DNA from: Methanobacteriota archaeon
Lineage (GTDB): Archaea > Halobacteriota > Methanosarcinia > Methanosarcinales > Methanosarcinaceae
Direction: 5' to 3'
DNA: 60,307 bases
Assembly (NCBI GenBank): GCA_016841625.1
Contig: JAENYU010000026.1
Location: forward strand, 1 to 60,307
A program made the position numbers and the translations under genes. The stretch's first letter is position 1. Each line of letters opens with the position of its first letter. This document shows positions 2,954 to 13,644 of the stretch, piece after piece. The notes below the pieces were generated by a model that worked only from the letters and a program-made list of their open reading frames with translations, had not been told where the DNA came from and ran no database searches.

Positions 2954-5284
2954 ATGTCCAGACAGCTTATGGATTCTACTGCCCGGTTGCTGGATTCGGT
3001 CCCGGGCTTGATTGAAAAGGGGAAATACAAAAAAGCCCTTGAAAATGCGGAAAAGGGGAAGAAGCTTGCGGAAAAGGTTAAGGAACCGGACCTAATTCAC
3101 TGGGCCATGCTGTCCAGGGCGGAGGTCTTTGAGTCTTCCGGCAGGCTGGAGGAAGGGCTGGAGGCTTATGAAGGGGCTTTTGATTATTTTTTTGAGATCT
3201 TTCTGAAGGGGGCAGGGGATGTCCGATACCAGGAACTTATGTATAACTCGGTCGGAAGGATCGGAAAGATTCTGGACGATATGGGCAGTATCCAGCAGAT
3301 ACATCAGACCTGTGAAAGAATAGAAAAGCACTTCGGGCCAATCCTTGCTGCCTATGAAGAGGTGCTTGCAAAAGACCCGGAAAATATCGATTATTTGTCG
3401 AATTACCTGAAGACGCTGGAAAACATCCAGACCTGTTATTCCCTTTCGGAAGAGTTCGAAAAGCAAATTCCCCTGGTCGACAGCATCCTGCAAACGTATG
3501 ATAAGATATTCGAATTCGAAGCTGACGATGCGGAACGTTTCTTCAGGCTTGAGAGCATGGTAGGGCAGTTCGGGGATGCCTGCCGGGTGAACGGAAACTT
3601 TGAAGAGGCAAAGCAGGTTTACGAACAGGTACTGGACATCTACGGAGCTATCCTTGAAAGGGAACCTGAAAACGAGCTTGCCCCCCAGTTCCTTATCCCC
3701 ACCTATGACCATTTAGGAGAGCTCTATGTGGAAATGGGGCATCCTGGCAAGGCTGAAGAAACTTACATACAGGCCCTTAAAGTCATAGAAGGGCAGATCC
3801 AGAAAGAACCTGAAGAGGCCTCCCATTTCCTGAACCGGGGCAAAATCTACCGGGACCTCGGGCTGAACTCCTCCGAAGTTGGAGAACAGGAGGAAGCAGA
3901 CCTCTACTACGAAAAAGCCATCGAGAGCTTCGAAGAACTGCTTGTAATAATGCCTGAAGAACCGGGATACCTGTACGAACTCGCCAGGATCTTCAGGGAG
4001 CTTGCGGAGTTTTTCGATCGCCTTTCGAGCCTGGAAAAGGCAAAAACCTGCTACCTGCATGAAATCGAAGTCTACGAGTCCCTGCTTAAAATCGATCCTG
4101 AAGACATAGATAATGAGCTCAACATCGCCGAAAGTTACAGCCAGATCGCAGAGCTCTATGAAGAAGCTGATGACCTGGAAAGCGCAAAAGAGTACTACGA
4201 TAAGGAAATGGAAGTGTATCAAAAACTGCTTTCCAAATACCCTGAAGAAAGCGAATACGAACACCACATAGTAGAAACCCTCAACTCCCTCGGGGACCTC
4301 TACCTTGAGACGGAAAAACAAACTGCACAGCAGTATTACGAAAAAGCCCTCGAAATAAGTAAAAAGGAGCTGGCGGAAAACCCTGAAGACTTTTTTGCAC
4401 GGAAAAACCTTATCAGATCCCTGGAAAACCTTTCATACCTGTATAAGATACAGGAACAGTATGAAACTGCAATTTCCTTCCAGCAGCGCGTAGTCGACCT
4501 CGAACTGGAGGCAGCAAAGGAAACCCCCAAAAAAAGGACGAACATAAGAAGCCTTGGAAGCGCTTTCAGCGAGCTTGGGCTCCTTTTCGAAAAATTAGGG
4601 GACACGGAAAAAGAAGGAGAGTCCCATTCAAAAGCCATAGAAACCTTTTCAAAGATTCTCCAGGACCCTGAAGAAGAGCCCAAAGCAAAAGACACCCTGC
4701 TTTTCGAAATAAAGACGAAGGGACTAATCTACATGAGTTTCGGAAGTTATGCAAGTGCAAAACCGTACCTGGAATTCCTCCGCAAATACTATGAAGATGC
4801 CTGCAAAGAGGATCCTGCGGACCCTGATAACTTCACGTTTCTCATTAGCGTCCTCTACCATATAGGGACCTTGCACTACAAAACTGAAAACTTCAAGGAA
4901 GCCCTTTTAAGCTTCAATGCCGCACAATCGACCCTGGAAAGCCTGAATAAAATAGTTCCAGAAGGCCGTGACGCACAGCTAAGAGCCGTGAACCTGCACA
5001 TCGGTTCTGGCAAAGCCTACTCTGGCTTAAACGAATACGAAAAATCAGAACATGCCTTTAAAGAAGCCCTGTCCTTGAATGGAAAAACCCTGGAAAAAGA
5101 ACCCAATAACCCTCTTCACCTTGAAAATAAGATTTTTGTGCTAGAACAATATGCAGACATGCTCTTAAAGGCAGGCAGGGGAGAAGAGGCTTCCGTTTAT
5201 GAATCAGAAGCTGAAGAGATAAGGCAAAAACTTGGGGTTGAAGAAGAGGAAGAAGAGGAAGAAGAGGAAGAAAATTGTGATTGA
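2954..5284 (+). CDS. Large tetratricopeptide-repeat (TPR) protein
   Basis: The 776-residue product is almost entirely helical repeats of the TPR type, with recurring A-x-x-x-Y-x-x-A-L/I and P-E-E/N/D turns spaced by roughly 35-45 residues from residue 20 to 755. It ends in a run of ten or more glutamates. TPR arrays are protein-protein interaction scaffolds. No enzymatic domain, signal peptide or membrane segment is visible, so it should be cytoplasmic. The start ATG lacks an obvious ribosome site; a second in-frame ATG five codons later is possible. The neighbours are a divergent TA pair upstream and a methyltransferase downstream, neither of which explains a partner. It is well coded in Methanosarcina-like codons and not decayed. 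Confidence 0.85.
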   Translation: MSRQLMDSTARLLDSVPGLIEKGKYKKALENAEKGKKLAEKVKEPDLIHWAMLSRAEVFESSGRLEEGLEAYEGAFDYFFEIFLKGAGDVRYQELMYNSVGRIGKILDDMGSIQQIHQTCERIEKHFGPILAAYEEVLAKDPENIDYLSNYLKTLENIQTCYSLSEEFEKQIPLVDSILQTYDKIFEFEADDAERFFRLESMVGQFGDACRVNGNFEEAKQVYEQVLDIYGAILEREPENELAPQFLIPTYDHLGELYVEMGHPGKAEETYIQALKVIEGQIQKEPEEASHFLNRGKIYRDLGLNSSEVGEQEEADLYYEKAIESFEELLVIMPEEPGYLYELARIFRELAEFFDRLSSLEKAKTCYLHEIEVYESLLKIDPEDIDNELNIAESYSQIAELYEEADDLESAKEYYDKEMEVYQKLLSKYPEESEYEHHIVETLNSLGDLYLETEKQTAQQYYEKALEISKKELAENPEDFFARKNLIRSLENLSYLYKIQEQYETAISFQQRVVDLELEAAKETPKKRTNIRSLGSAFSELGLLFEKLGDTEKEGESHSKAIETFSKILQDPEEEPKAKDTLLFEIKTKGLIYMSFGSYASAKPYLEFLRKYYEDACKEDPADPDNFTFLISVLYHIGTLHYKTENFKEALLSFNAAQSTLESLNKIVPEGRDAQLRAVNLHIGSGKAYSGLNEYEKSEHAFKEALSLNGKTLEKEPNNPLHLENKIFVLEQYADMLLKAGRGEEASVYESEAEEIRQKLGVEEEEEEEEEEENCD

Positions 5285-6155: not shown

Positions 6156-8279
6156 TCATTTTTTAGGGAGTTCCCACGGGGGTAGGGAACCGTAGTCGAC
6201 TTTTTCAGAACTTGTATTTTCAGGGTCATCGGATTCCGGGGCTTTAAGGTCAGATTCATTACTGCTGTTATCGGCGGCAGTCTGATTGGATTCCTCTGCA
6301 GCAGGGTTGACTGGACTCACGGGATCGGCAGAATCTACAGAGCCAGCAGAATCACTAGAATTTGCAGAATCACTAGAATTTGCAGAATCACTAGAATTTG
6401 CAGAATCATTGGAATTTGCAGTATCACTAGAATTTGCAGAATCACTAGAATTTGTAGAATCAGCAGAACCGGCAGGCCCGGTTCCCCCGACGCTTTCTGA
6501 AGCATTTCCGTCCTGCACAATGGATTCGTTTCCCGAGCCGGACATGTTTTCGTCTTCGGGGGTGGCGTTGTCCATTCCGGGGAATTGGGGGCCGTAGTTC
6601 AGGAATGCCAGGGCAATGCCACCGAGGACTGCGAAAGCCAGGAGGATAAGGATAAAGTTGCGGACGTTTTTCATAAGCTTTTTTCTGCGGGTATGGATTT
6701 TTTCATCCCTTGCTTCGGCGTAATTGCTTCCGAGCAAGGAGTCCAGCTTTTCCGCCTGCTTCTCGCTTAGCTCCAGGACAAAATCGTCCCCTGTCCCTGT
6801 TGCACGTTTATCCGTGGTCTTGAAGGCTGAGGCTTTTTGCTCTATCAGGGTTTTGAGGAGCAGTTTGCCGCCCTCCCCCACCGCGGGCAGGGTTGAAAGT
6901 ACCTGCTTTAAAAAGTTTACAGCTTCGTGCGGGCTGAGGGGGTCGAACCCTTTGCGAAGCCCCCAGGCGAATGTTTCCCTTCCTTCGGGGTTTCCGTAAA
7001 AAGAAGCGTCGGCAGTAAGGGCAAGCAGGGAAGGAGAGGGCTTGCCTTTGCGGTAGCCTTCCTCAAGCATCAGGGCAAGTTCGGAAACGAAGGTTTCGTA
7101 AAAGAAGCCGTTTTCCAGGAGGTAGCGCTGGACCTCTTCTTTTTCCCCGATGCTGTTAAGCCCCCGGTACAGCTCCAGCATGAAGGCTTCAAGCCCCTTG
7201 CTCACGGAATCCGTCCCGCTCAGTTTCCTGATCACTTCGGCTGCAAGTTCCTTATTCCGGAACACGAATACCCTGTCAGCCCAGCCCCTGGCAACCAGGG
7301 CATCAGCAAGTGCTTTCAGGGACTCGGGCCTGTCCAGGTAAAGTTCGAAGAGGGTTTCGATTTCTCCCTTTTCCATGAAAATGTCAGTGATTTCGGGCCC
7401 GAACTGCTCGATCATTCCCTTCCTGACTTTCTCAAAGAGCTCCTCCCTGTCCCTGGTATTTTCCCGGAAAGCTCCCTCATATACCGGGTATTCCTGCTGC
7501 TCTGCCATGTGGACAAAAGCCCGGTAGAGAAATTCGTAATATTCCACAGGATAGGAAGTCTCCAGACCCCGCGAAGCCGGGTTGAACCGCAGGTCTCCGT
7601 TTTCAAAGAAAAAGTAAGGGTCAGGCTCCCCGGGCCCGGCTGACAGGTCAAGCTCGGACGGATAAAGGGAAAGGGCAAAACTAAAAGGCAGGTGAAGGGC
7701 AGGCCTCAAACCTGAAACCAGGCTGAAAACCAGCACAAGTCCTTCCTCAAGTTTCGAGGCCCGGATCGAGACCGGCTGGTTTGAGAGAAGGATTCCCGCG
7801 GGATAAGCAAGGGACCCGGCAGGGAATTTTTCCGGGGAAGAAGCAGAATCCGGAGAACCCGGAGAACCCGGAGAACCCGGGAATCCCGGTGAATCCAGAT
7901 CGCCTGCTTTCCACAAACCTATAACGTCATACCGGATTGCCTCCAGCGCTTCGGTCCTTGCCCTGGCCTGCTTATAGAACTTTTTGAGCCAGGTCCCCGC
8001 CCGGTCAAGCTCCTCCTGCGGGATTTTCGAGATAAAGACAACCCTTTCTTCCCTGCCCAGCTTAATTTTAGCCAGGAGGCTGCAGCCGAGAAGGACTGCC
8101 CTGCCCCCGGTCTCAACATATAGGGCAGTTCTTTTAATGTCCAGCTTTTTTGCAAGTTCGGAGTACTCTTTAAAGTCATCATTTCCTGCCAGCAGCTTTC
8201 CGCTTGAGCTGAATACCCCGAAAGCAGAACTAGAGCCAGAACCGGAGCCGGAATCAGAAGCCGAATTTCGCAATTTCAC
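6156..8279 (-). CDS. Single-pass membrane protein with Asn/Ser repeat tail, tubulin-operon member
   Basis: The roughly 707-residue protein has a large N-terminal globular region of no family I recognise, a membrane segment near 540-560 (ILILLAFAVLGGIALAF) and a 145-residue hydrophilic tail rich in Ser, Asn and Asp. The tail carries repeated NSSDSA units with many N-x-S/T sequons, suggesting an extracellular, possibly glycosylated stretch. A second short repeat, Gly-Ser-Pro-Gly-like, lies near residue 135-145 (DNA at about 7849-7890). Topology is inferred as N-terminus inside because lysines precede the membrane segment. The gene overlaps the preceding GTPase gene by about 26 bases. A GTG at 8279 is chosen because GGAGG lies just upstream; TTG at 8282 is an alternative. 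It is last in a four-gene operon and probably ties the tubulin/GTPase machinery to the cell surface. Confidence 0.75.
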   Translation of the reverse strand: MKLRNSASDSGSGSGSSSAFGVFSSSGKLLAGNDDFKEYSELAKKLDIKRTALYVETGGRAVLLGCSLLAKIKLGREERVVFISKIPQEELDRAGTWLKKFYKQARARTEALEAIRYDVIGLWKAGDLDSPGFPGSPGSPGSPDSASSPEKFPAGSLAYPAGILLSNQPVSIRASKLEEGLVLVFSLVSGLRPALHLPFSFALSLYPSELDLSAGPGEPDPYFFFENGDLRFNPASRGLETSYPVEYYEFLYRAFVHMAEQQEYPVYEGAFRENTRDREELFEKVRKGMIEQFGPEITDIFMEKGEIETLFELYLDRPESLKALADALVARGWADRVFVFRNKELAAEVIRKLSGTDSVSKGLEAFMLELYRGLNSIGEKEEVQRYLLENGFFYETFVSELALMLEEGYRKGKPSPSLLALTADASFYGNPEGRETFAWGLRKGFDPLSPHEAVNFLKQVLSTLPAVGEGGKLLLKTLIEQKASAFKTTDKRATGTGDDFVLELSEKQAEKLDSLLGSNYAEARDEKIHTRRKKLMKNVRNFILILLAFAVLGGIALAFLNYGPQFPGMDNATPEDENMSGSGNESIVQDGNASESVGGTGPAGSADSTNSSDSANSSDTANSNDSANSSDSANSSDSANSSDSAGSVDSADPVSPVNPAAEESNQTAADNSSNESDLKAPESDDPENTSSEKVDYGSLPPWELPKK
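6361..6468 (-). repeat. Six in-frame 18-bp tandem repeats in the Asn/Ser tail
   Basis: The plus-strand unit tttgcagaatcactagaa recurs six times with one to four changes at 6361, 6379, 6397, 6415, 6433 and 6451. On the coding strand each unit encodes six residues, mostly Ser-Ser-Asp-Ser-Ala-Asn. Because the unit is a multiple of three, slippage would change tail length without breaking the frame. Confidence 0.9.
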
Positions 8280-9741
8280 CAACCCTCCAGGGGAAAATCT
8301 GGGTAATTCTCTGCTGTTCTTCGATCCGTTTTCCTTTCGAAAGCTGGGGAGAGAGCGTTGCGTCCACGCTGACGGTGTAAAAGTAGACAGGGACTTTCCG
8401 GGCCCTGTGGAGGATTTCCCTGAAGGTATCGGTTTTGCTCAGGAGTCCGTAGATTTCCTCTTCGACCTCCCGGGCTTCCCCCGAATCTTCCGGAATTTCG
8501 GACAGGTCTTTGAACTTATCCATTTTTGTTATAACGAGGGCGTAAGATTTGTCGCTCCCCAGGAGGTCCATTAGCCGGGAATAAAGCCCGAAGAGGCGGG
8601 TTAATTCCATTCTTCCTTCCAGGTGGTAGTCAAGGAGGTAGTCCCCGTCCACAAGGAAAATGATTTTCCCGGCAGTTTCCATTTTTTTGTATATGGAGGC
8701 AAGGATCAGGTCGTGGAATTCGCCCCTGAGTTCCTTTGCATAGTCTTTTTTCAGCTGTTCCATGAAGCTGATAGTCCCGATCCGCCTGTAGATGGTGTTT
8801 ATATTGAAGCGTTCCAGTTTTTCATCAAGATTATTCACCGCCCGGGCATAATTTTCAGGGTCCAGGTCGGCGGTATACTCCCCGCTGTAATCGATGAAAG
8901 AAAACTCTATGGGAATTGCCCCTTTTTTCCCGGACAGCACATACATTGCCATATCCGCACGGCTGGTGCTCTTTGGCATGTTCCCTGTTTCTATTTCCGC
9001 AAGCATGGACTCGATCCTCAGCCTGTCCTCGTTTGCTTTCGAGAGCTTCCCCTCCGTGTCGTAGGAAAGGATGATTTCCCTGTGCGTGCCGCCGTAAAAG
9101 TTCACGAAATGGTTGTACAGGGCAAGGAGGAGGAAGGTCTTTCCCGACCTTGAAGGCCCGTATATGAAGACCTCGGAAATCCGGACGTCCCGGATGAGAT
9201 CTGTCAATTTATACAGGGCAAGCACCACCAGCAGGGCCAGCCCGAGGTCCAGGGGTTTTTCCGTCCCTCTTTCAAGAAAACTCCCCAGCCTTTCCCCTGA
9301 GAACGGGTATATGAGTTCCAGACCCAGGACAAGGATGTAGACGGCCAGGGCAAAAAAAAAGAGCCTGGAACCTGTCCTTGCATAACCCGTAAGCAGATTG
9401 AACCTGTTATTGTGAAGGGCCTGCCAGTCCAAAAGCCCGCCTATCAGGAGGCCCAGAAGCAGCCCGTTTGTCTTCAAGACTCCCTGGTCAAAAGAAAGAA
9501 AATACAGGAAAGGCAAAAAGACCGCAATTAAAAAGAAACCCCCTTTTCTTGACTGTTCGTGGAAAAACATCCCTGAAGCGCTTGCGACTAAAAATGCCGG
9601 AAAGAAACTTAGCAAAAAAGCTCCTGCCCAGGAAAGCTGTGAGAATCCTAATGTCCCTGCAAACCATAAAAAAAGGAAAGATAAAAGCAGGACCAGGCTT
9701 ACTGCCGGAAGTTCATAGAGGAGTTTCAGGCTGCCGTGCAT
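8254..9741 (-). CDS. Polytopic membrane GTPase of the tubulin-like operon
   Basis: The first 180 residues hold about six hydrophobic helices, followed by a cytoplasmic nucleotide-binding domain: Walker A GPSRSGKT at 197-204, a G3-like FIDYSGEY (Asp286, Gly289) and a G4 specificity motif TKMD at 407-410. That set points to a TRAFAC-type GTPase rather than an ATPase. Residues 230-330 contain an insert between G1 and G3. It overlaps both neighbours (tubulin-like gene by 29 bases, membrane protein by about 26), which implies translational coupling. The ATG at 9741 or 9747 are both possible; 9741 is used here. Known membrane-anchored small-GTPase-like proteins control assembly or gating, so regulating polymer assembly at the membrane is a reasonable but unproven role. 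I do not recognise a named family. Confidence 0.75.
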   Translation of the reverse strand: MHGSLKLLYELPAVSLVLLLSFLFLWFAGTLGFSQLSWAGAFLLSFFPAFLVASASGMFFHEQSRKGGFFLIAVFLPFLYFLSFDQGVLKTNGLLLGLLIGGLLDWQALHNNRFNLLTGYARTGSRLFFFALAVYILVLGLELIYPFSGERLGSFLERGTEKPLDLGLALLVVLALYKLTDLIRDVRISEVFIYGPSRSGKTFLLLALYNHFVNFYGGTHREIILSYDTEGKLSKANEDRLRIESMLAEIETGNMPKSTSRADMAMYVLSGKKGAIPIEFSFIDYSGEYTADLDPENYARAVNNLDEKLERFNINTIYRRIGTISFMEQLKKDYAKELRGEFHDLILASIYKKMETAGKIIFLVDGDYLLDYHLEGRMELTRLFGLYSRLMDLLGSDKSYALVITKMDKFKDLSEIPEDSGEAREVEEEIYGLLSKTDTFREILHRARKVPVYFYTVSVDATLSPQLSKGKRIEEQQRITQIFPWRVGEIAKFGF

Positions 9742-12700
9742 CTTCATTTTTCAAAGCCTCTCTCAAGCTTTTTTCTTCATACAGTTCATTGATCCTTGCT
9801 CCGACGTTTACCCCTTTCTTTTCCAGGTTTGCCAGTTCCCCTGCTTCCTTCAGGTCAAGCAGGGCTTTTCGGGTTATGTATTTTCCTTCATGGAGTTTGA
9901 GCACATGGTGAAGCAGGTTATCCTTCTTATTTTCATACACCTCCCAGAAGCCTCCCCCCGCAGTCAGGGGCGAGATATTGTCCAGGAAACCCGTAGCTGA
10001 AAAGAAGGTCAGGGCAATGTCCCAGGGTTTTGTGTGGTTGTGGGTGACAAGCTTGGCATCATTGCTTTTGCTCAGGGCAAGGATCCCGTTTATTTCTTCT
10101 TTTATCCCGTCGGCTATGGGTTCGCTTGCAATCCGGCTTGAAATGTAGGAGGACCGCGAAGAAACCACCAGGGCGGCTTTACCGAAATTCCAGCGTTCGG
10201 TGGTGCTGATAGGAATCATCAGGTTATGGATCCCGAGTTTGTAACTTTCGATCAGGTTTTTGTAAGTAACCTGGATTTCCCCGATGAGCTTGTCAAGTTC
10301 GCGCTTCCCGCTCTCGTCCCAGTCAAGGTCCCTCATATCGGAACCCTCGTCGATCAGGGAGAGAATTTTGGGGTTGATGTCCCCGAACTTTGTCATGTAA
10401 AGGCTGCTCCGGGTCTTGCTCCCCGAAGGCTTGATATCGCTGAGCTTTGTGAAATGCTCGTAAAACTTATCGTATTCCCTGGAAAGGTCCCTTCTGTAAG
10501 CGAGCGTCTCCTCGGTAAGAACCTCGATTTTCCCGAGGAAAACGGAAAGGGCACTCTTAGCCTCGAGGCTTTCTTCAAGCTCTCTAAACACCGTCTCAAT
10601 CCGCTTCAGTTTTCCTGCATAGTCTTCCTTTTGCAGGTAGTAGTGGGTCAGGACTTCTCTCAGGAGACTTCTCAATTTCGGCCTGTCCCCCGACTTAAAC
10701 GCCCGGTCGATTTCCTCAATATCGGCATCTTTCCTGTTCAGGTCGAAAAAGAGGGAGTTCATGATCTCGTTTTTAAGTTCCTCGGACTTTTTGTTCTGGC
10801 TTTCACTCAGGAAATTTTCGGGAACGTAGAGTTCGAAAGGAGGGTTTACCTGGACATAGTCCCTTCCCGAGCTCTTGATATAATCTTCCATGCTCCGTTT
10901 CTGGGCTTCAAACCTCCTGAGAAGCTTCTTTTTATTCCCCTTTACGACCCCGACCAGCTTATCCTTAAAGCTCCCCTTTTCGATCCGCTTGATCCTGTAA
11001 TCGTAATAGTAGTAGAGGGAAATCGATTCCACGAGTTTGGAAAGGACCTGGAGGTCTATGTCAAGCTCGTGGGACATGGCGTTAATTTCTCTCTGGAGTT
11101 CCGGGACCCCGGTCAGGTTCAGCCAGCTCTCCTTATCCGTGCTTTTGAAGTTTCCTGCCTCGAAATTGTTGATGAATATGTCAATTTCCGATTTCAGCTG
11201 CTCCTCATGTTCCCGGACGTTATCCAGTTTCTTCCTCTGGATAAAGTACTGGTCGATGTCCCGGTCGTTATCACTTAAGGCTTTATCGACGTCCTTTTCC
11301 ACCCGGGAATGCACCTGTTCCAGGTAGTCCTTTTCAACCTGCTTGCTTTCGATTTCAGCTTTTGTTACCAGGCTATCTTCCTTGAGCGTCTTGGATTTTG
11401 CGTTGAGCCGGTCAACAGAGGCCACGAGTTCCTGTTTGCCTTTCAGGACATTTATGAGCACGGCTCTGGCAGTTTCCTCCTCAATGCCCGCAACCCTCTT
11501 GAAGAGACTTGCCGTGTCTTCTATGCCCTGCAGGGTCTCGGGGATCAGGCGAAAGAGCTTCTTGTCATTTTCATCTTTTAGTTCGTCTTCCTTTACGCTG
11601 CTTGTGAAAGTTTTTGCCCTGGAGATGAAGTCCAGCAGGTCGTCATAGCTGCTTATGTTTTCAATCCCGGCGTCTGCCGAGATGTTGTTGCGTATGAAAA
11701 ACTCGACAGCTCCCGGGGTCTGGTAGTTAAGGAGCTTTCCGATTTCGTTTTTCCAGACTTTCTCGGCGTTTGTGTATTCCTTCTTAATAAACTCGGAATC
11801 CGTCCGGGTAGGGGGCATTTCCCTGAACATCTCGGAGCTGTCCAGCAGGGCTTTTACCGCCCTGTTGATCTCTTTCCTTGCCCCTGCGATTTTTTCAAGT
11901 TCCAGGATGATTTCCTCATACTGTTTTTTCAGGGTTTTCAGCTCTTCTACAGGGTACTGGATTACATGGGCATCTGCAAAAATAAACGAGGAATACAGGC
12001 GTTTTGAGTCGCTGAGGTTTATGTCCCCTTTTTCAAGATGGAAGAAATTCGTAAGGATGTGTGGGAACATGGAATCAAACTCGTGCACTTCCACCCTGGC
12101 CTCTTCTCCCTTTTTATATCCCGTCGGCCCGAGGGAGCTGAGTACCACATAGTTGAAGAGCCTCTCGTTAATGTTCAGGTATTCAAGCTCTGTAAGAGCA
12201 ATTGCGGCGTTTAGCTGCTCCATTTCCCCTTCTTTTGTCGTGGGAATTACCGCAAAGAGCCAGATCTGGGTAGCCTCCCCCCGCAGAGCCCGGATATACC
12301 GCGCAAGGTCGATGAACATCCCTGCCCCGGTCCCTCCTCCGAGCCCGACAATAATTGCCGTTGTCCCGGTACTCGGGAAGGTCGGAAAGCCGCTTGCCTG
12401 CCCCTGGCTCAGGACCTTATAGAAGATCGCCTTTGAAATCGCCCTTCGTCTATGCACTCCCCCTCCGAAATCGTCAATCAAAAAAGGGTCGATTGTCCTG
12501 AGTTCCTCAAAACTCAGCCCCCCTTCCCCGGGGTCGTTCAGCCACCAGGTGCTTACGGCAGGGTCCGATTTCCTTTCCTTGATCTTGGCTGCCACATCCT
12601 GGCTTGCCAGGTCCGAGACCTGGTTTATGTTTGCCAGGGAAGGGAGGTAATAGTAATTGTATTCGATATTCCCCCTGGCTCCCATTTCCTGGATCCCTGC

Positions 12701-12919
12701 CCGATACTCGCTTCTTTGCAGCTCGTCTTCCACTTTCTCGTTGGCATCCGTATCCATGGTATAGATCCTGAGCCTTTTTCCTGAAGCAAGGTAATTGCCA
12801 AGGATCCATTCGTGCCTGCAGATCTCCCCGCAAAGGCGTTTTCCACAGCCTCCGATCCCAACAATTGTAAGGTCCGTAGGAAGCTGCAGTGTAGAATAGT
12901 TACTTTCCCTTCCGTTCAT
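9713..12919 (-). CDS. Large tubulin/FtsZ-like GTPase with coiled-coil C-terminus
   Basis: At 1068 residues this is over twice FtsZ or tubulin. The N-terminal 330 residues form the GTPase: TIVGIGGCGKRL at 18-29 (the GGxG loop), MDTDAN at 55-60, and the tubulin signature GGGTGAG at 194-200 followed by the FIDLARYIR helix. Residues about 330-830 are charged and heptad-like (long Glu/Lys/Leu stretches), consistent with coiled coil. A second folded part follows to the end. The pattern fits the Tubulin_2 type of prokaryotic tubulin-like proteins rather than FtsZ or CetZ, which are about 350-400 residues. The start ATG overlaps the stop of the upstream membrane protein gene as ATGA, after a gaggagga ribosome site. 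Its partners are two membrane proteins and a membrane GTPase. Confidence 0.85.
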   Translation of the reverse strand: MNGRESNYSTLQLPTDLTIVGIGGCGKRLCGEICRHEWILGNYLASGKRLRIYTMDTDANEKVEDELQRSEYRAGIQEMGARGNIEYNYYYLPSLANINQVSDLASQDVAAKIKERKSDPAVSTWWLNDPGEGGLSFEELRTIDPFLIDDFGGGVHRRRAISKAIFYKVLSQGQASGFPTFPSTGTTAIIVGLGGGTGAGMFIDLARYIRALRGEATQIWLFAVIPTTKEGEMEQLNAAIALTELEYLNINERLFNYVVLSSLGPTGYKKGEEARVEVHEFDSMFPHILTNFFHLEKGDINLSDSKRLYSSFIFADAHVIQYPVEELKTLKKQYEEIILELEKIAGARKEINRAVKALLDSSEMFREMPPTRTDSEFIKKEYTNAEKVWKNEIGKLLNYQTPGAVEFFIRNNISADAGIENISSYDDLLDFISRAKTFTSSVKEDELKDENDKKLFRLIPETLQGIEDTASLFKRVAGIEEETARAVLINVLKGKQELVASVDRLNAKSKTLKEDSLVTKAEIESKQVEKDYLEQVHSRVEKDVDKALSDNDRDIDQYFIQRKKLDNVREHEEQLKSEIDIFINNFEAGNFKSTDKESWLNLTGVPELQREINAMSHELDIDLQVLSKLVESISLYYYYDYRIKRIEKGSFKDKLVGVVKGNKKKLLRRFEAQKRSMEDYIKSSGRDYVQVNPPFELYVPENFLSESQNKKSEELKNEIMNSLFFDLNRKDADIEEIDRAFKSGDRPKLRSLLREVLTHYYLQKEDYAGKLKRIETVFRELEESLEAKSALSVFLGKIEVLTEETLAYRRDLSREYDKFYEHFTKLSDIKPSGSKTRSSLYMTKFGDINPKILSLIDEGSDMRDLDWDESGKRELDKLIGEIQVTYKNLIESYKLGIHNLMIPISTTERWNFGKAALVVSSRSSYISSRIASEPIADGIKEEINGILALSKSNDAKLVTHNHTKPWDIALTFFSATGFLDNISPLTAGGGFWEVYENKKDNLLHHVLKLHEGKYITRKALLDLKEAGELANLEKKGVNVGARINELYEEKSLREALKNEDARQPETPL

Positions 12920-13644
12920 TCCTCCTCCTCCTCGGACCCGCCGAACCTGATCCCCAGGACAAAGCCCACAGCCAGAAGGGCAATCCCTCCGAGTACATAG
13001 CCCCAGATAAAGGAACTTCCCTCTTCCTCAAGCAGGTGGTCCGCTATTTCATTTGCCTCGGTGACAAGCCCCTTATCGAACATGTCCTGCAGGTATACGC
13101 TGAAAAAAGAGTCGTCCACACGCGTCATTTTCCCCTTGAACTCGTCGATCTCGGAAACCGTAATCGAAAACGTGCGGGTGTCGCTCTCTCCCAGGGGGTT
13201 TCCGTCCTCATCGGTCAACCTGATCCTGTAGTAAGCATACCCTGTCAGTTTGGGGTCGTATTTTATCAGGGTAAGTTCGTCGCATTGTTTGACCTCCCTT
13301 ATTTCCGGGACCTGCCCATTCAGCAGGACAACAATTTTGTCCCGCTTATCTTCAACAGGAAGCACAAAGTGGCTCTCATTGCTTTTAAGGTCCAGGCCCG
13401 TAAAATTATATATCGCCCGCCCGTCATATTTTACCAGGTCCGTATCAAAAGAGATAAAATCCGCAGCAGCGGGAATATTACTAATCGTAAGGGCGATGCT
13501 TATCACCTGCTTTTCCTCAGCCTCTCCAGGCAGCTCCCCTTCCACCCCGATCTGGGTTGCCGATGCAGGTCCCGAAATCGTGCACAGAAGAATAAACAGG
13601 AAAGCTAACACAGTCACGCAAATGGCTTTATGCCCCAGTCCCAT
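12916..13644 (-). CDS. Secreted, C-terminally membrane-anchored protein, first gene of the tubulin-like operon
   Basis: The 242-residue product begins with a signal peptide (basic start, hydrophobic core from about 8 to 25, then SASATQ-like cleavage region) and ends with a membrane helix (ILGGIALLAVGFVLGI-like, about 212-232) plus a short acidic cytoplasmic tail EEEEE. The middle is beta-strand-rich and would lie outside the cell. It contains ITLTISNIP-type immunoglobulin-like strands, but no family was recognised. It starts the operon, and its TGA shares bases with the next ATG. It probably acts as the external sensor or anchor for the cytoplasmic tubulin-like protein. Confidence 0.7.
   Translation of the reverse strand: MGLGHKAICVTVLAFLFILLCTISGPASATQIGVEGELPGEAEEKQVISIALTISNIPAAADFISFDTDLVKYDGRAIYNFTGLDLKSNESHFVLPVEDKRDKIVVLLNGQVPEIREVKQCDELTLIKYDPKLTGYAYYRIRLTDEDGNPLGESDTRTFSITVSEIDEFKGKMTRVDDSFFSVYLQDMFDKGLVTEANEIADHLLEEEGSSFIWGYVLGGIALLAVGFVLGIRFGGSEEEEE

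What the first reader, a model, noticed from the sequence alone, without database searches (positions are those of the whole stretch)
6156..13644. Four-gene operon coupling a giant tubulin-like protein with a membrane GTPase and two surface-facing membrane proteins
Seen: four overlapping minus-strand genes whose products have a tubulin signature (GGGTGAG, residues 194-200 of 1068), a polytopic membrane domain joined to a GTPase with G1, G3-like and TKMD motifs, a signal-peptide protein with C-terminal anchor, and a single-pass protein with an Asn/Ser-rich outer tail. Known: tubulin-like proteins of this large kind (Tubulin_2 type) are poorly characterised in prokaryotes, and to my knowledge have been discussed in GTPase-centred systems of uncertain role. 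Inference: a membrane-linked cytoskeletal assembly in which two GTPases control each other, possibly for cell-surface organisation, vesicle or gas-handling functions, or a conflict system.
Basis: partly seen in the sequence, partly recalled or inferred. Interest (0 to 1): 0.82.

Follow-up and report, generated by a model that had tools for sequence, protein, structure and literature searches.

The report
Archaeal membrane-linked giant tubulin operon
A methane-making archaeon carries four overlapping genes, kept together in many related archaea, for a very large tubulin-like protein, a GTP switch sitting in the membrane and two surface-facing partner proteins; this is a distinct archaeal form of a known but functionally untested family of tubulin systems.

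Summary
Window 6156-13644 (minus strand) holds four overlapping genes: SP242, a signal-peptide protein with a C-terminal anchor; TUB1068, the giant tubulin; GTP497, a membrane GTPase; and GAP708, with one membrane span and a glycosylatable tail. The tubulin is not usually alone: 46 of 52 strong tubulin places in 393 genomes of the phylum have the GTPase directly downstream, and 33 of 52 loci examined keep all four genes in order. The tubulin belongs to the FtsZl1/Tubulin_2 family, already described for archaea with membrane GTPases (Makarova & Koonin 2010). The GTPase is a distant DO-GTPase relative, from the GTPase-tubulin systems of Kaur et al. 2020. New here: these archaeal operons lack that system's GAP1 protein. 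In its place is an unrelated-looking protein that AlphaFold models as an alpha/beta domain (longin/DENN-like match, moderate only), an alpha-solenoid, one membrane helix and a tail with 14 N-glycosylation sequons. I read the locus as a membrane-spanning, GTP-switched tubulin scaffold linked to the cell surface. Its biological role (membrane remodelling, envelope stress or conflict) is undetermined. Verdict: a real, conserved system; new variant of a known kind.

The parts
12916..13644 (-). SP242: signal-peptide-like N-terminus, beta-sandwich ectodomain (about residues 33-162), three helices, C-terminal membrane anchor, short acidic cytosolic end
   Evidence: ORF; conserved family A4; AlphaFold mean pLDDT 71, nine or so strands then helices; beta-sandwich matches up to Z 7.6; no Pfam hit
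9713..12919 (-). TUB1068: giant tubulin/FtsZ-like protein of the FtsZl1 (Pfam Tubulin_2) family
   Evidence: PF13809 45.2 bits, E 1e-11; GGGTGAG; alignment A1 with invariant T1/T4 loop residues
8254..9747 (-). GTP497: about five N-terminal membrane segments joined to a P-loop GTPase related to DO-GTPases
   Evidence: GPSRSGKT, DYSGE, TKMD; PF19993 DO-GTPase2 E 3e-4, below cut-off; hhalign to archaeal/actinobacterial DO-GTPases prob 88%, E 3.5e-6
6156..8282 (-). GAP708 (GAPx): cytosolic alpha/beta domain (about 20-235), alpha-solenoid (about 246-490), one membrane helix (543-561), extracellular tail with 14 N-glycosylation sequons
   Evidence: AlphaFold mean pLDDT 75.6, most of 20-560 above 85; family A8; no Pfam family in 27 members except tail domains

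Best explanation
The four genes encode one membrane-spanning machine, an archaeal variant of the FtsZl1/DO-GTPase tubulin systems. TUB1068 is cytoplasmic and probably assembles with GTP into a polymer or ordered scaffold. GTP497 is a membrane-embedded switch GTPase that recruits or releases it. GAP708, encoded directly downstream and coupled in evolution to the GTPase, takes the place that GAP1 holds in bacterial systems: its cytosolic alpha/beta + solenoid part most likely regulates the GTPase, and its glycosylatable tail and membrane helix connect it to the cell surface. SP242 is an ectodomain with a membrane anchor and a short acidic cytosolic end that couples the complex to the S-layer side. 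The likely outcome is GTP-switched assembly of a scaffold under the membrane in response to, or acting on, the envelope. SHOWN: gene order, family membership of tubulin and relatedness of the GTPase, predicted topology, co-conservation, absence of a recognisable GAP1. INFERRED: physical complex, polymerisation, regulation by GAP708, envelope role.
For: Overlapping genes in one strand order. 46 of 52 tubulin places have the GTPase next downstream; 33 of 52 tubulin loci keep SP-TUB-GTP-GAPx in order. Distance matrices of the four families correlate at r 0.89-0.98 over 28-35 loci (species relatedness not removed). Tubulin_2 above cut-off. DO-GTPase relation. G381 has GTPase and GAPx adjacent with no tubulin match in its genome, which points to a GTPase-GAPx pair. 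GAP708 and SP242 both have surface-exposed parts; relatives add extracellular PEGA, PKD-like or CarboxypepD-type domains as extra genes or tails. Three ordinary tubulin/FtsZ genes elsewhere in the genome make a core division role unlikely.
Against: No biochemical data. The FtsZl1 family lacks a confidently recognisable T6-H7/T7 region, so filament formation is doubtful (PMC2875224; my profile comparison also aligned only to about residue 245-250 of the tubulin). Seven loci lack SP242, six lack GAPx and one tubulin has neither GTPase nor these, so the outer parts are not obligatory. Conserved synteny alone does not show a complex.
Confidence: 0.55

Rival explanations
1. It is a biological-conflict (anti-virus/dormancy) system: the GTPase is the threshold switch, GAP708/SP242 sense a surface event and the tubulin is the multimerising effector, as proposed for GAP1-N2/tubulin systems.
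For: DO-GTPase relation; Kaur et al. place tubulins, HSP70, GrpE and vWA with DO-GTPases (PMC7159879); two haloarchaeal plasmid relatives lie beside HSP70 and vWA genes, one also beside GrpE; patchy presence, 12 of 31 genomes of one genus.
Against: GAP1 absent; the window operon sits between core-type genes whose synteny is kept in the genus; no effector enzyme or toxin-like gene in the operon; no PADLOC match beyond weak scores.
Confidence: 0.25
2. It is a membrane-remodelling or vesicle-budding machine (the original Makarova-Koonin proposal), with the tubulin bending the membrane through GTP497/SP242 anchors.
For: All partners of the tubulin are membrane proteins; the archaeal GTPases are membrane-associated in PMC2875224; GAP708's alpha/beta domain resembles eukaryotic DENN trafficking regulators at moderate score.
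Against: No direct evidence for vesicles or curvature; DENN similarity lacks sequence support.
Confidence: 0.35
3. A DNA or plasmid positioning system, like TubZ.
For: Best PDB profile hit is TubZ, E 1e-5; some relatives lie on plasmids.
Against: No DNA-binding partner (TubR-like) in the operon; partners are surface membrane proteins; this copy is flanked by chromosomal core-type genes.
Confidence: 0.04

Closest known systems
FtsZl1 / Pfam Tubulin_2 (PF13809) operons, Makarova & Koonin 2010 (PMC2875224)
   Same: Same tubulin family, size, GGGTG signature, and an associated divergent GTPase with TxKD, membrane-associated in archaea; a Methanosarcina acetivorans sequence is in their alignment.
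   Different: No vWA, OmpA or protein kinase gene in this operon; the 242-aa and 708-aa partners have no named domain (they may be among that paper's unlabelled families; its supplements could not be read).
GAP1-N2-type DO-GTPase systems with tubulin, Kaur et al. 2020 (PMC7159879)
   Same: DO-GTPase-like protein with membrane helices, a tubulin-domain protein, a downstream protein with a C-terminal membrane helix, and beta-sandwich ectodomains.
   Different: No GAP1 or zinc ribbon; the tubulin theme was reported as restricted to Firmicutes and Actinobacteria; here the GAP1 position holds an unrelated-looking protein (hhalign prob 0.6-0.9%).
DENN modules (longin + DENN + d-DENN; Rab GEFs), PMC3521125
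   Same: AlphaFold model of GAP708 (residues 11-328 at most) aligns to DENND1A, DENND1B and DENND10 (Z 6.6-7.0); a helical region follows.
   Different: No sequence match; scores in the range that can be coincidental; DENN proper is described from eukaryotes in that paper.

Membership tests
FtsZl1 / Tubulin_2 | PF13809 match above curated cut-off | tested here: met
   45.2 bits against 27, residues 189-254
FtsZl1 / Tubulin_2 | GGGTG(S/T)G-type loop in an N-terminal domain of a protein of about 1000 aa | tested here: met
   GGGTGAG 194-200 of 1068; G194-G198 and G200 invariant in A1; GGGSGSG in three of the wider set
FtsZl1 / Tubulin_2 | Present beside conventional FtsZ/tubulin genes in the genome | tested here: met
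   three PF00091 genes elsewhere in G000
FtsZl1 / Tubulin_2 | Linked GTPase with TxKD | tested here: met
   TKMD at 407; directly downstream in 46 of 52
FtsZl1 / Tubulin_2 | Linked vWA gene (majority of described operons; frequent, not defining of the protein family) | tested here: not met
   none in the operon or the flanking genes scanned; vWA occurs near haloarchaeal relatives
FtsZl1 / Tubulin_2 | GTP-dependent polymerisation | not testable with these tools
   needs protein
GAP1-N2 DO-GTPase systems | DO-GTPase with Glu in Walker B | tested here: inconclusive
   DYSGE present; PF19993 20.8 bits, below cut-off 27; hhalign prob 88%, E 3.5e-6
GAP1-N2 DO-GTPase systems | GAP1 protein | tested here: not met
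   no PF20013 in G000; GAPx against GAP1 profiles prob 0.6-0.9% (the GAP1 profile rests on four sequences)
GAP1-N2 DO-GTPase systems | FNIII-repeat component | tested here: inconclusive
   SP242 is a beta-sandwich by model, fold matches mixed (cohesin, YcnI, Ig, FNIII-type) at Z up to 7.6; no Pfam FNIII
DENN module | longin + DENN alpha/beta + helical d-DENN fold | tested here: inconclusive
   6ekk_A Z 7.0, 8p0v_M Z 6.7, 3tw8_C Z 6.6 over residues 11-328; Foldseek prob 0.94 but E 0.04
DENN module | sequence-profile similarity to DENN families | tested here: not met
   no DENN family among those listed in the Pfam scan of 27 members at E up to 10; none in the PDB profile search at E up to 10

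The most novel reading that the evidence does not exclude
GAP708 is a prokaryotic DENN-like regulator (longin plus DENN-type alpha/beta domain) of a membrane switch GTPase that controls a giant tubulin polymer, i.e. an archaeal GTPase-regulator-tubulin device that resembles, and may predate, eukaryotic trafficking GEF modules.
Probability: 0.18. Interest if true: 0.85.

Novelty: new variant of a known kind. Interest (0 to 1): 0.5.

Why it matters
The FtsZl1/Tubulin_2 family has been known since 2010, and I found no experimental study of its function in the papers I could search. This locus gives a minimal four-gene version that is conserved across methanogens and, from genome size and the control hit, is very probably present in Methanosarcina acetivorans, which is genetically tractable. 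The role of the largest tubulin-like proteins can therefore be tested by deletion and tagging. The replacement of GAP1 by a different solenoid protein also identifies the likely GTPase regulator.

Tried and rejected
GAP708 as a divergent GAP1: rejected by profile comparison and by absence of GAP1-N2 in the genome. Defence-family identity: only weak PADLOC scores, partly in the low-complexity tail. Recovering the T7 catalytic loop of the tubulin: profile alignment to archaeal CetZ-like proteins stopped at about residue 245-250; a GDINLSD stretch after the GTPase domain looks T7-like by eye in the methanogen clade but is not established. Search for close relatives in the genome-contig collection with the GTPase found only two same-genus contigs; phages: none. 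GAP1 in plasmids by protein search: none, though two Rhodococcus plasmids were reached through the GTPase. Sigma-70 and terminator scans were no better than shuffles and do not suit archaea. Listed Pfam matches to GAPx members outside the PKD/Ig-type tail domains were all weak and inconsistent. Longin and Roadblock structures were not among the rows listed for GAP708, which excludes nothing.

Full report
What is there. The window is contig C18 of a 3.76-Mb archaeal genome. Two same-genus contigs found by search are titled Methanosarcinaceae/Euryarchaeota. On the minus strand four overlapping genes run SP242 (13644-12916), TUB1068 (12919-9713), GTP497 (9747-8254), GAP708 (8282-6156), with overlaps of 4, 35 and 29 nt.

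Identity of the parts. TUB1068 matches Pfam Tubulin_2 at 45.2 bits (cut-off 27) over the GGGTGAG region and is otherwise without known domains. GTP497 has about five membrane segments and G1/G3/G4 motifs; its best Pfam family is DO-GTPase2 at E 3e-4, below cut-off, and a profile of 13 relatives matches a profile of true DO-GTPases with probability 88%, E 3.5e-6. The invariant residues over very divergent relatives are mostly those of the GTP site: G197, P198, G202, K203, D286, Y287, G289, T407, K408, D410. SP242 and GAP708 have no Pfam match of note.

Predicted structures. SP242 (mean pLDDT 71) is a beta-sandwich between a signal peptide and three helices plus a membrane helix; matches are mixed beta-sandwiches up to Z 7.6, so no specific family is claimed. 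GAP708 (mean pLDDT 75.6; most of 20-560 above 85) has an alpha/beta part with strand-strand-helix-three strands-helix at its start, then an alpha-solenoid, a single long helix that spans the membrane, and a disordered tail. In the second-look alignment most rows cover the solenoid (importin, TOG and similar repeats); the rows that cover the alpha/beta part are three DENN-type structures, DENND1A (Z 7.0), DENND10 (6.7) and DENND1B (6.6). The tool warns that Z below 8 may be a common arrangement, Foldseek's own E-value is 0.04, and no sequence profile supports DENN. I treat it as a lead only.

Conservation. With a tubulin profile and a GTPase profile over 393 genomes of the phylum, 46 of 52 tubulin places at E below about 1e-36 have the GTPase directly downstream on the same strand, mostly within 220 nt. 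In 52 tubulin loci read gene by gene, 33 have SP, tubulin, GTPase and GAPx in this order; 7 lack a recognisable SP (Methanohalobium plasmid and haloarchaeal types); 6 lack GAPx; one is cut by a contig end; 4 have tubulin and GTPase only; one tubulin is alone (my count). One genome (G381) has GTPase plus GAPx and no tubulin match. Pairwise distances of the families correlate strongly (r 0.89-0.98), as expected for genes inherited together, although this test does not remove shared species history. The system is accessory: 12 of 31 genomes in one genus have it. A genome whose main contig has 5,751,492 bases (G412) carries the full operon (L053); from my own knowledge that size, together with the Tubulin_2 control hit in M. 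acetivorans, identifies M. acetivorans.

Context. In the genus of the window the operon lies between a methyltransferase gene and genes with molybdopterin-binding and Fe-S domains, and these neighbours are conserved. That is unlike a mobile defence island. By contrast, distant relatives sit on plasmids of Methanohalobium evestigatum, Halorubrum, Haloplanus and a Natrialbaceae archaeon, in two cases beside HSP70 and vWA genes, once with GrpE. Another lineage adds a fifth gene for a PEGA-repeat surface protein. The cytosolic core is conserved and the outward parts vary.

Known background. Makarova & Koonin (PMC2875224) described FtsZl1 proteins in bacteria and archaea, with vWA proteins and a divergent GTPase that is membrane-associated in archaea, and proposed membrane remodelling; they stressed that T6-H7 elements could not be identified. 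Kaur et al. (PMC7159879) described DO-GTPases with GAP1, tubulins, HSP70 and FNIII proteins as conflict systems near the membrane and gave the tubulin theme as restricted to Firmicutes and Actinobacteria. The present operon joins these two descriptions: it has the archaeal FtsZl1 and a DO-GTPase-like switch, but no GAP1. True DO-GTPase/GAP1-N2 systems with HSP70 do exist in two other genomes of the phylum (L048, L087) and differ in gene content.

Mechanism. Best supported: GTP497 is a membrane switch, GAP708 its cytosolic regulator with a surface tail, SP242 the outer anchor, and TUB1068 the assembling part. The family assignments, topology predictions, order and co-conservation are shown; complex formation, polymerisation and regulation are inferred. 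Whether the output is membrane remodelling, envelope stress response or conflict cannot be decided from sequence. The confidences given to the best explanation and to its rivals overlap, because the first states the machine and the rivals state its purpose.

Verdict. A real and conserved system, known in outline since 2010 and again since 2020; this archaeal GAP1-less four-gene form is a new variant of a known kind.

Noticed in passing
L028 (G001:C14), 9302-12589 and 7017-8768: A second giant tubulin (1095 aa) in a same-genus genome without the GTPase, preceded by a caspase plus FGE-sulfatase protein and followed by a DUF2971 protein, a conflict-like neighbourhood.
   Followed up: partly
L067 (G381:C2): GTPase and GAPx homologues adjacent without any tubulin match in the genome; upstream gene has about 12 membrane segments.
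   Followed up: partly
L048 (G037) and L087 (G291): Archaeal DO-GTPase/GAP1-N2 systems with cysteine-rich N-termini on the GTPase and HSP70 genes alongside.
   Followed up: partly
family f10 genomes (e.g. G237:C139, G105:C1): A separate group of about 900-aa proteins that match only the GGGTG region of the tubulin profile, about one per genome.
   Followed up: no
L014/L040 (G054): A 433-aa Tubulin_2-like protein in a run of membrane-protein genes, unlike the giant form.
   Followed up: no
L044 6750-7676 (plasmid of Methanohalobium evestigatum): In place of SP242 the gene before the tubulin encodes an archaellin/type IV pilin-like protein, and the GAPx homologue is annotated as a PGF-pre-PGF domain protein.
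   Followed up: no
L079 11212-13146, L062 11431-12963: Fifth gene after GAPx: signal-peptide protein with PEGA repeats.
   Followed up: partly
L053 9530-11995 (probably M. acetivorans): GAPx of 821 aa with an apparent repeat of its N-terminal domain; the tubulin has GGGSGSG instead of GGGTGSG.
   Followed up: no
window 2954-5284: TPR protein of 776 aa with an acidic Glu-rich end; no strong homologue in the same-genus loci read.
   Followed up: no
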